Made by a program: the position numbers and the translations under genes. 64,000 bases of DNA from the NCBI RefSeq assembly GCF_000165425.1, contig NW_001798973.1, forward strand, positions 228,918 to 292,917, written 5' to 3'. The notes beneath the pieces are model-generated. The model saw only the letters and a list, made by a program, of their open reading frames with translations, had not been told where the DNA came from and searched no databases. Of the stretch, positions 61,668 to 64,000 are shown piece after piece; the stretch's first letter is position 1, and every line of letters begins with the position of its first letter. Source of the stretch: Paramecium tetraurelia (taxonomy: Eukaryota; Ciliophora; Oligohymenophorea; Peniculida; Parameciidae).

Positions 61668-63131
61668 TCAATAATAAAAATATAATATATAATCAATCAT
61701 TGTTGGAAGATTTGTGGCTAATTTGCATTAATTAATCGTGAAAACTAAAAAGCTTTTCGAAAATTGTTTAGTTATTTATAAAGAATGCACTTGAGAATTA
61801 TAAATTAAAAGAACCTTTGAGTTTAATTATTGCTTCCGTGTTCCAAATAGTTTTAGAAATCCATTCATCACAGCATTATATGGAATCAACCCATCTTCCT
61901 TAAATTTCTAGAGCTTCAACTAATAATATATTTTTTAATACTTTTTTTGATATAGAATTCACTTATAGTGTTGTTTTTTTTAATTCCTTTATCCCAACAT
62001 TAAATAATCTCTTCAAATTTTCCCTATTTGAATAAACATCGTGCTTTAAAACTATTATTTTAATTACTTTTGGCTTCGTAAAAAATCATATCATCGAATA
62101 AATCAATATAATGATTGGCCTCTTCGATAATTTATTCTATCTTTTCTTATTCTTCTAAAGCTTAAACTAAAATTATCTAATAAAAGTTAACATTTCTTTT
62201 TATAAAAAAATGAAGTATTTGGATTATTTTTCATTCCTTCGTCCCAACATTCAATGATTTCTTCCAATCTATTTAATTTCTTTAAATAATTAGCTAATCA
62301 TTACTAAATCATTACACCTTTATCTTCATAAAAGATTTGAACCTGCCTATGCATATGAATTCCATGATTCAAACATTTAATTACTTCATCCCATCGCTCT
62401 AATTTTTCTAAAGCACTAACTTAAATAATTTACTGTCATTCTACCTTTAGATTTAATATAAAATAGAGTATCATTTCCATTTTATATTGCAAAATCCCAA
62501 CATTCTACTATCTTTTCTTAACAAAATGTTTCTCCATAACATTGGATTAAAGCCTAAACTATATTATTCAAACTTTGAATACCTTTTTGCTTATAAAAAT
62601 ATGGATCTGTTTTATTATTTTAAATTCCAAACTCCCAAACTTAAATAGCCTCCTCTAACCTATTCTATTTTTCTAACTCCACAACTATCAAAATACCAGG
62701 ATATTTTGTACATTTATAGGCGTAAAATATAGGATCAGTCTTATTAAACATTATTCCTTAATCATAGCATTTAATTATCTCATCGTATCTCTTTTGACTT
62801 TTTAAAGCACAAACTATAAACTTAAATGCATAAATACCTTTCTAGTGATAAAAGGTAAAATCATTTTTATTATTTTAAATCCCTTATTCCCAGGCATCGA
62901 TAACTTCATTTTGAAGATCTAATTAATTTAAAATCCTTGCTAAATGGATTTATTCATCTATTAATACTTTTGGCTTTGTAAAATTCTAATTCATTTTTGT
63001 TATCTGATATTGCAATATCACATTATTTTAAGGCATCTTGTAATCTACCTTACTTTATTAAAAGAGAAACTATAAATTAGAATCTTTATACTTTCTTTAG
63101 AAATAAATTGAAAATCTGATTTTGAATTCAT
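61668..63131 (-). CDS. TPR protein with an intron in every repeat
   Basis: Predicted 397 residues built from about ten 34-residue TPR-like repeats of the form VxALxxQxRxDEIIKCxDxGIxxNKTDPxFYxxK. Eleven introns of 22-28 nt all fall at the same place, phase 1, immediately after the codon of the Lys that ends each repeat (examples start at 62829, 62727 and 62603). Removing all eleven (270 nt) gives a perfectly divisible frame from ATG 63131 to TGA 61668, strong support for the model. Repeats include VCALKSQKRYDEIIKCYDQG and FVELEKQNRLEEAIQVWEFG. TPR solenoids bind peptides; the partner is unknown. Confidence 0.9.
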
Positions 63132-63196: not shown

Positions 63197-64000
63197 ATGT
63201 TAGAATAGAATTGTGGTTGCTCTGTTGATCATTAAGAGGAAATAATTGGAATTTGTTTATCAGATAAATGTGTGAATAATGCATAATTTTGCTATAATTG
63301 TTTAAGATAATTTCATTATGAGCACTAAAAATAATGCCAGACTTTTAAAAATCTCTTCAACTAACTGGTTGAGGATAAAAAATAACTTTAAATTTATGTT
63401 AATTATGTAAAACAATTTAAGGTGATATTTGACGAAATCTATCGAAAGCAGCTAGAAAAAAGTTAAGAAAATATTGAAAAATTAAATTCAATAAATTTAC
63501 GTATAAAAGAAAAATCATTTTATCCAACAGATTCAGACATCCATTTTCTTAGGAATTATAAGTCAAGCTAACAATATTTTTAATGTAAATTATAATAATT
63601 ATCTGAACAGAATGGATTGCCAAATTGGAGTGGATTGAGAAATGAGTTTATAATTAGAAGGATTATTAAGATCAGGATCAGAACAAAACTGACTAATAAA
63701 CAATAGATAAGACTTAAGATTAGAAGCGTGCTACTGAACCGGACTTAACTGATGGTTAAACAATAGATCAAGATCAAGATTGAGAGAACACAGATGTTGT
63801 GGTATAATAAGGTATGCATCAGATATTCAATTTTGGGTATTGACTTATTTGATAACAAGTGATTTCGGGGAGCATTAGTAATTTTTGAGAGGTTTCCTAA
63901 TTCTCATAAAGAGGCTATCAATTGGAAAAGTATTTTTCAGATTCATAAGGTTGATAGTGTAATGCTTATTGCGAATGAGAGGTTATCGTTATTTTGTCGA
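63197..64000 (+). CDS. Zinc-finger-type protein, truncated by the window end
   Basis: ATG 63197 opens MLEQNCGCSVDHQEEII then a Cys/His cluster (ICLSDKCVNNAQFCYNCLRQ FHYEHQKQC) like the B-box-type motif at the start of the WD40 gene at 48474. A helical region follows (YVKQFKVIFDEIYRKQLEK). From about 63660 short direct repeats rich in gatcaagat/actgataa occur, which in one frame encode an Asp/Gln-rich stretch; splicing here is unresolved. Coding-like sequence continues to base 64000 (RFPNSHKEAINWKSIFQIHKV), so the 3' end is outside the window. Confidence 0.6.

What the first reader, a model, noticed from the sequence alone, without database searches (positions are those of the whole stretch)
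61668..63131. TPR gene with a phase-1 intron at the same spot in every repeat
Eleven introns of 22-28 nt each interrupt the codon right after the Lys ending a 34-residue repeat. The total spliced length is an exact multiple of three and every repeat keeps its pattern. This suggests that an exon-intron unit (about 100 nt coding plus 25 nt intron) was amplified, or that introns were gained at a protosplice site before amplification. Repeat growth by adding whole modules cannot break the frame, which fits a tiny-intron genome.
Basis: seen in the sequence. Interest (0 to 1): 0.85.

Follow-up and report, generated by a model that had tools for sequence, protein, structure and literature searches.

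The report
Exon-modular TPR repeat genes in Paramecium
This Paramecium gene is built from repeated protein modules, each encoded by its own exon of about 34 codons followed by a tiny intron, and it is an old member of a family whose genes grew by copying exon and intron together.

Summary
On the minus strand, 63131 to 61668, a Paramecium tetraurelia gene encodes one tetratricopeptide repeat (TPR) per exon. All 11 proposed introns (22-28 nt) are phase 1, and those between repeats split the codon of TPR residue 8. Intron 11 is doubtful.

It is not a one-off. In 33 TPR loci of the genome, 357 of 391 introns lie at that exact residue and phase. Of 297 internal exons, 285 are exactly 102 nt. Eight further loci gave 64 of 68 introns and 50 of 54 exons. 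Arrays carry the intron either nearly everywhere or almost nowhere. Within arrays, intron identity rises with exon identity from 0.56 to 0.90, so exon plus intron was copied as one unit. In the window gene itself the introns are too diverged to show this.

The family is enriched near contig ends. In young arrays, replacements concentrate at TPR concave-face positions, without proven positive selection. The closest known case is the 90-bp-exon, phase-2 LRR arrays of Tetrahymena (PMC6564038). I rate this a new variant of that kind. RNA evidence is lacking.

The parts
61668..63131 (-). TPR-array gene, 12 exons, 397 aa plus TGA stop
   Evidence: spliced model; Pfam TPR hits; public protein P0001 on a contig of the same length
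63092..63131 (-). exon 1 (ATG, 13 codons plus 1 base), not a TPR
63070..63091 (-). intron 1, 22 nt, phase 1
   Evidence: GTA...TAG; TPR exon on one side only
62968..63069 (-). exon 2, TPR unit, 102 nt (profile score 32.5; the public model reads its end in another frame)
62940..62967 (-). intron 2, 28 nt, phase 1, in-frame TGA (read as coding, in another frame, in P0001)
62838..62939 (-). exon 3, TPR unit, 102 nt
62814..62837 (-). intron 3, 24 nt, phase 1
   Evidence: also spliced in P0001
62712..62813 (-). exon 4, TPR unit, 102 nt
62685..62711 (-). intron 4, 27 nt, phase 1 (read as coding in P0001)
62583..62684 (-). exon 5, TPR unit, 102 nt
62559..62582 (-). intron 5, 24 nt, phase 1
62445..62558 (-). 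exon 6, TPR unit with 4-residue insertion, 114 nt
62420..62444 (-). intron 6, 25 nt, phase 1
   Evidence: not called
62318..62419 (-). exon 7, TPR unit, 102 nt
62294..62317 (-). intron 7, 24 nt, phase 1, in-frame TGA (P0001 uses another splice here)
   Evidence: not called
62192..62293 (-). exon 8, TPR unit, 102 nt
62167..62191 (-). intron 8, 25 nt, phase 1
62068..62166 (-). exon 9, TPR unit, 99 nt
62044..62067 (-). intron 9, 24 nt, phase 1 (read as coding in P0001)
   Evidence: not called
61942..62043 (-). exon 10, TPR unit, 102 nt
61920..61941 (-). intron 10, 22 nt, phase 1
61815..61919 (-). exon 11, TPR unit, 105 nt
61790..61814 (-). proposed intron 11, 25 nt, phase 1, weak sites (GTT...AAG): uncertain
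61668..61789 (-). exon 12, C-terminal part; reading frame depends on intron 11; not TPR-like in either reading

Best explanation
The gene is an old, diverged member of a family of P. tetraurelia TPR-array genes whose unit of growth is one 102-nt exon (one 34-residue TPR) plus one tiny phase-1 spliceosomal intron that splits the codon of TPR residue 8. Shown: position, phase and exon length are the same across the family; exon and intron are copied together in young arrays; arrays either have the intron almost everywhere or hardly at all. Inferred: a founder TPR gained one intron in the residue-8 codon without loss of coding sequence; the exon-plus-intron unit was then multiplied by unequal crossing-over or gene conversion in the germline nucleus. 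Exons flanked by phase-1 introns and 34 codons long add or lose whole TPRs without a frameshift. In old arrays such as this one mutation has erased intron similarity but not intron position. The protein is expected to be a TPR solenoid that binds other proteins; its ligand is unknown.
For: Gene model and TPR assignment. 357 of 391 array introns at one residue and phase in the 33 loci with a TPR segment, of 42 loci scanned; on 20 modular loci, 291 of 322 with a profile made only from intron-poor arrays, 312 of 322 if a slip of 1-2 residues towards the exon is allowed; 64 of 68 in 8 later loci. Exactly 102-nt exons: 285 of 297 and 50 of 54. Intron identity follows exon identity within loci, hardly between loci; permutation test at or below 0.05 in 11 of 20 loci. 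Junction occupancy 0.79-1.0 in 20 loci and 0-0.13 in 11. Nearest exon in the same locus for 165 of 292 exons, about 15 expected. In close pairs intron cores diverge about as fast as third codon positions. 275 of 357 introns would shift the frame or bring an in-frame TGA if kept (from the table).
Against: No RNA data. In the window gene the intron sequences show no excess similarity, and only 1 of 7 of its 102-nt exons has its nearest neighbour in the same gene. 9 of 20 loci give no significant exon-intron correlation, most of them diverged arrays but also L032, L040 and L044 (mean exon identity 0.77, 0.70, 0.63). 82 of 357 introns could be read through, and the public model reads introns 4 and 9 of this gene as coding. 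Tandem duplication and gene conversion cannot be told apart here. Two loci have intermediate occupancy: L055, 3 of 7 junctions, and L008, 1 of 5. Intron lengths (18-34 nt allowed) and GT/AG ends are limits of the search itself.
Confidence: 0.85

Rival explanations
1. Introns were gained independently at a preferred site (AAG|G-like, at the Lys-Gly8 codons) after the repeats had multiplied.
For: The site resembles a protosplice site (recalled notion): 272 of 357 introns follow AAG. In old arrays, the window gene included, introns are unrelated in sequence.
Against: Young arrays have introns as alike as their exons. Occupancy is bimodal, not intermediate. Intron-poor arrays with mostly Gly or Ala at the same residue have introns at 2 of 92 junctions in L035, L038 and L046.
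Confidence: 0.07
2. Gene conversion between repeats, and not addition of whole units, spread one intron along already existing arrays.
For: Gives the same exon-intron co-similarity, and paralogues are homogenised within loci.
Against: Does not by itself explain different array lengths between loci; the introns would have to fill nearly every junction.
Confidence: 0.2
3. Some of the segments that are multiples of three are not introns but variable coding insertions at repeat ends.
For: The public model P0001 reads introns 4 and 9 as protein; by eye P0015 and P0026 hold similar insertions; 82 of 357 segments are readable.
Against: They have GT...AG ends at the same site as the 275 that cannot be read, and removing them leaves the usual 34-residue unit (exon 9 of the window gene then has 33). 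In L060 29 of 31 such introns carry an in-frame TGA, though after removal of near-copies there is no general excess of TGA.
Confidence: 0.1
4. The introns arose by intronization, that is from former coding sequence at the repeat ends.
For: Splicing of exonic sequence is described as a major mode of intron gain in Paramecium (passage in PMC11334263).
Against: 285 of 297 exons still encode the full 34 residues, the same unit as in intron-poor arrays, so no coding sequence was lost.
Confidence: 0.03

Closest known systems
Tetrahymena 90-bp-exon LRR gene arrays (PMC6564038; abstract and passages seen)
   Same: Ciliate gene family; tandem exons of one exact length that is a multiple of three; nearly all introns in one phase and register; young and old members; amplification by recombination proposed there; location towards chromosome ends (there of germline chromosomes, also near centromeres).
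   Different: TPR not LRR; 102 nt not 90 nt; phase 1 not phase 2; introns of about 26 nt instead of tens to hundreds. That paper says P. tetraurelia LRR genes lack the 90-bp peak and have few introns. Here only ends of somatic (macronuclear) contigs could be looked at. Association with a retrotransposon was not tested.
Exon-bordering domain repeats of animals (PMC1553488; abstract part and passages seen)
   Same: Repeat growth by copying exons flanked by introns is considered for some families.
TPR superfamily (Pfam TPR_1, TPR_2, TPR_11, TPR_14, TPR_17)
   Same: 34-residue units, hits over cut-off.
   Different: The window gene lacks Gly or Ala at TPR position 8 at 10 of 11 introns; the family at large keeps Ala or Gly in 302 of 357.
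Multi-copy IESs in TPR and WD40 repeats of P. tetraurelia (PMC3464196; passages seen)
   Same: Germline inserts multiplied by expansion or recombination of TPR repeats in this species.
   Different: IESs are removed from DNA, introns from RNA; the passages seen do not describe the exon-intron unit.

Membership tests
TPR repeat proteins | Pfam TPR score above curated cut-off | tested here: met
   TPR_14 43.4 bits (cut-off 23.5), TPR_17 32.9 (24.4), TPR_2 31.5 (27), TPR_1 31.3 (27.8), TPR_11 28.8 (26.8)
TPR repeat proteins | 34-residue period | tested here: met
   7 of 10 units exactly 34, the rest 33, 35, 38; family 285 of 297 exons
TPR repeat proteins | Gly or Ala at position 8 (recalled consensus) | tested here: not met
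   Window gene 1 of 11; family 302 of 357. Not needed for the Pfam assignment.
TPR repeat proteins | helix-turn-helix solenoid fold | not tested
   The spliced protein is not contiguous in the DNA, so it was not sent to the structure tool
Paramecium spliceosomal introns | 20-35 nt, GT-AG | tested here: met
Paramecium spliceosomal introns | removed from mature mRNA | not testable with these tools
   No RNA reads available; public model agrees for 5 of 11
Tetrahymena 90-bp-exon LRR arrays | LRR domain, 90-bp exons, phase-2 introns | tested here: not met
   TPR, 102 nt, phase 1: works like it, is not a member
Tetrahymena 90-bp-exon LRR arrays | tandem exons of one exact length with extreme phase bias | tested here: met
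   (family level)
Tetrahymena 90-bp-exon LRR arrays | retrotransposon next to exon-intron units | not tested
   -

The most novel reading that the evidence does not exclude
P. tetraurelia carries a chromosome-end-enriched, fast-evolving repertoire of recognition proteins made of exon-encoded TPR modules. Each intron cuts helix A between the two groups of fast-changing, ligand-facing residues (TPR positions 34, 1, 2, 5, 6 at the exon end; 9, 12, 13 at the start of the next exon), so copying or swapping modules makes new binding surfaces as well as longer arrays. It would be a TPR counterpart, arisen independently, of the Tetrahymena LRR arrays.
Probability: 0.3. Interest if true: 0.8.

Novelty: new variant of a known kind. 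Interest (0 to 1): 0.6.

Why it matters
It would show that two ciliates independently built repeat-gene families from exact exon-intron modules, with different repeats and different intron phases. It offers a system with introns among the smallest known in which module copying can be dated unit by unit, because the intron records near-neutral divergence while the exon records selection. It also suggests that public gene models of this family keep some readable tiny introns as protein.

Tried and rejected
Intron similarity inside the window gene as proof of recent module copying: rejected, no excess.

In-frame TGA enrichment in introns that are multiples of three, as proof of selection by nonsense-mediated decay: significant on all 357 (odds ratio 2.6, p = 3e-4), but due to one clone (L060); it vanished after removal of near-copies at three thresholds (p 0.42-0.71).

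Positive selection at concave positions: dN/dS 0.88 (bootstrap 0.65-1.24) against 0.42 (0.35-0.51) elsewhere in 67 disjoint pairs; faster evolution is shown, values above 1 are not. The control is imperfect: ohnologue-like units of intron-poor L035/L038 give 0.03-0.04 with no concave excess, but these are copies between loci, not repeats within one gene. Of the seven positions taken as concave, position 33 is not raised (0.90), and positions 6 and 1 outside the set are (1.76, 1.52). The pairs behind share exons and are not independent.

Near-contig-end location: 19 of 27 modular arrays within 30 kb (4.5 expected; 0 of 200,000 simulations reach it), but contig ends may also be assembly breaks caused by the repeats. 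With arrays under 3 kb from an end left out, 11 of 19 still lie within 30 kb (2.9 expected, P = 3.5e-5). Intron-poor arrays: 4 of 11, 1.9 expected, P 0.10. Loci were chosen by match score, hit pattern and cluster size, not at random; places are those of the TPR matches; the window gene was not counted. The reversed-pattern control of the telomere search (85 and 146 matches against 45 and 51) is no control, since the reversed repeat is itself telomere-like; I rely on position only.

Full report
What was checked. The window is the last 64 kb of contig C20 (292,917 bases) of a 69-Mb ciliate assembly. The public protein on a contig of that length is labelled Paramecium tetraurelia, macronuclear. 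Read with TAA and TAG as glutamine, the minus strand from 63131 to 61668 gives, after removal of 11 short GT...AG segments, an open frame of 397 codons plus TGA. Five Pfam TPR models exceed their cut-offs. Exons 2-11 carry one TPR each; all 11 introns fall after the first base of a codon. In TPR numbering (recalled) the split codon is residue 8.

Strength of the single-gene model. Seven of 11 introns must be removed to avoid a frameshift or an in-frame TGA; introns 3, 4, 5 and 9 could be read through. The unbiased search found introns 2-5 and 8-10 in register and broke off at 6 and 7; with a profile from intron-poor arrays it found 2-8 and 10, half of them one or two residues off. The public model P0001 splices introns 3, 5, 6, 8 and 10 as here, starts in another frame inside exon 2, reads introns 2, 4, 9 and 11 as coding and splices differently at intron 7 (comparison by eye). 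Exon 2 in my frame scores 32.5 against the family TPR profile; the last exon scores no better than shuffled peptides in either frame, so intron 11 is open.

Family survey. I wrote a spliced Viterbi search with a circular 34-position TPR profile, in which an intron of 18-34 nt with GT and AG ends may fall at any residue and phase at equal cost. It was run on 42 loci fetched from the genome by TPR searches; one gave a segment above the score threshold. Of 391 introns inside arrays, 357 lie at one residue and in phase 1. To test for a bias from the starting profile, a profile made only from three intron-poor arrays was run on 20 modular loci: 291 of 322 at that place, 312 of 322 there or one to two residues on, in phase 1. 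Eight loci fetched afterwards, chosen for matches that begin near residue 7, gave 64 of 68; seven of the eight are modular. Exons between such introns are exactly 102 nt in 285 of 297 and 50 of 54; the exceptions are multiples of three, as the search requires. For comparison, P. tetraurelia genes have 2.3 introns on average (PMC5663052, passage) and Paramecium exons average 393-418 bp (PMC11334263, passage). The TPR lists were capped or partly scored, so the family size is not known.

Two kinds of array. Twenty loci have an intron at 79-100% of repeat junctions; eleven have 0-13%; two are in between on few junctions (L055 3 of 7, L008 1 of 5). The intron-poor arrays also repeat in units of 34 codons, so units with and without an intron both multiply.

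Copying of exon plus intron. Within loci, mean identity of intron cores rises with exon identity: 0.55-0.56 at exon identity 0.4-0.5, 0.61-0.62 at 0.6-0.7, 0.68 at 0.7-0.8, 0.79-0.80 at 0.8-0.9 and 0.89-0.91 above 0.9; random introns give 0.58; pairs from different loci stay at 0.55-0.63. A permutation test per locus is at or below 0.05 in 11 of 20 loci; the failures are mostly arrays with low exon identity, but L032, L040 and L044 (mean exon identity 0.77, 0.70 and 0.63) also fail. The window gene belongs to the diverged group: mean exon identity 0.59, intron identity not above baseline, r = 0.34 with 28 of 2000 permutations as high. Nearest-neighbour exons lie in the same locus for 165 of 292 (about 15 expected), but for 1 of 7 in the window gene. 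Copying as a unit is therefore shown for young arrays and inferred for this one.

Nature of the segments. Of 357 introns, 237 are not a multiple of three and 38 of the other 120 carry an in-frame TGA, so 275 cannot be read as protein. In close exon pairs intron cores diverge about as much as third codon positions (0.086 and 0.088 above exon identity 0.9). GT and AG are invariant by construction of the search. Since the exons keep 34 codons, the founder intron was probably inserted, not carved out of coding sequence.

Evolution and place. dN/dS among repeats of one locus is 0.66, 0.60 and 0.48 in three identity classes. Replacements concentrate at TPR positions 9, 2, 12, 5 and 34; the positions taken as concave (2, 5, 9, 12, 13, 33, 34: recalled from the TPR literature, not from a call) average 2.08 against 0.71, rank test p = 1e-5, over 11 loci; position 33 is not raised. 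In disjoint pairs dN/dS is 0.88 there and 0.42 elsewhere; the interval of the first includes 1. Modular arrays lie near contig ends: 9 of 27 within 5 kb (0.75 expected), 19 of 27 within 30 kb (4.5 expected), with the assembly caveat. Telomere-type repeats lie within about 1 kb of the arrays on C76 and C174. The window gene is 0.9 kb from its contig end, which shows no such repeat.

Prior art. [quoted passage not shown] abstract and passages seen). Its authors were unaware of other eukaryotes with such uniform exon and intron features and noted that P. tetraurelia LRR genes lack the 90-bp peak. I found no description of the Paramecium TPR modules in the listings, nor in the passages that I opened of PMC3464196, PMC12862383, PMC5663052 and PMC11334263; that library lacks most subscription papers. 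A 2012 paper notes that multi-copy IESs of P. tetraurelia reflect expansion or recombination of repeats such as TPR and WD40 (PMC3464196, passage). Earlier work on introns in repeat-protein genes in general (Street, Rose and Barrick) is recalled only.

Other species. The window protein found only its own record and two distant proteins of other sources at E up to 0.001. Among the 120 listed of 215 hits to a young-array query, most of them prokaryotic or unnamed TPR proteins, are one of P. octaurelia and one of P. sonneborni (P0022, P0090); their intron structure could not be seen.

Verdict. Observation confirmed, with intron 11 doubtful. A new variant of a known kind.

Noticed in passing
window 63197-64000 (+): A reading frame on the other strand has an ATG 65 bases from the start of the TPR gene (head to head), with a Cys/His-rich, zinc-finger-like start (by eye), and runs towards the contig end.
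   Followed up: no
P0001, P0015, P0026: Public P. tetraurelia models of these arrays seem, by eye, to translate some readable module introns as insertions of about 8-9 residues at repeat ends.
   Followed up: partly
L060 (C24:251900-256300): A very young array (mean exon identity 0.86, intron identity 0.89) in which 29 of 31 introns that are multiples of three carry an in-frame TGA: one founder intron multiplied.
   Followed up: partly
L035 and L038 (C229 and C10): A pair of nearly intronless TPR arrays; 33 of 34 units of L035 have a close match in L038, strongly conserved (dN/dS 0.03-0.04), in contrast to the modular arrays.
   Followed up: partly
C174:16746-16842: Telomere-type repeats inside a contig, about 1 kb beyond the end of a TPR array; possibly an alternative chromosome end or an assembly join.
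   Followed up: no
C25:309276-310490 and C128:458285-459499: TPR matches with identical scores and spacing on two contigs, suggesting a very recent segmental copy; neither gave an array segment.
   Followed up: no
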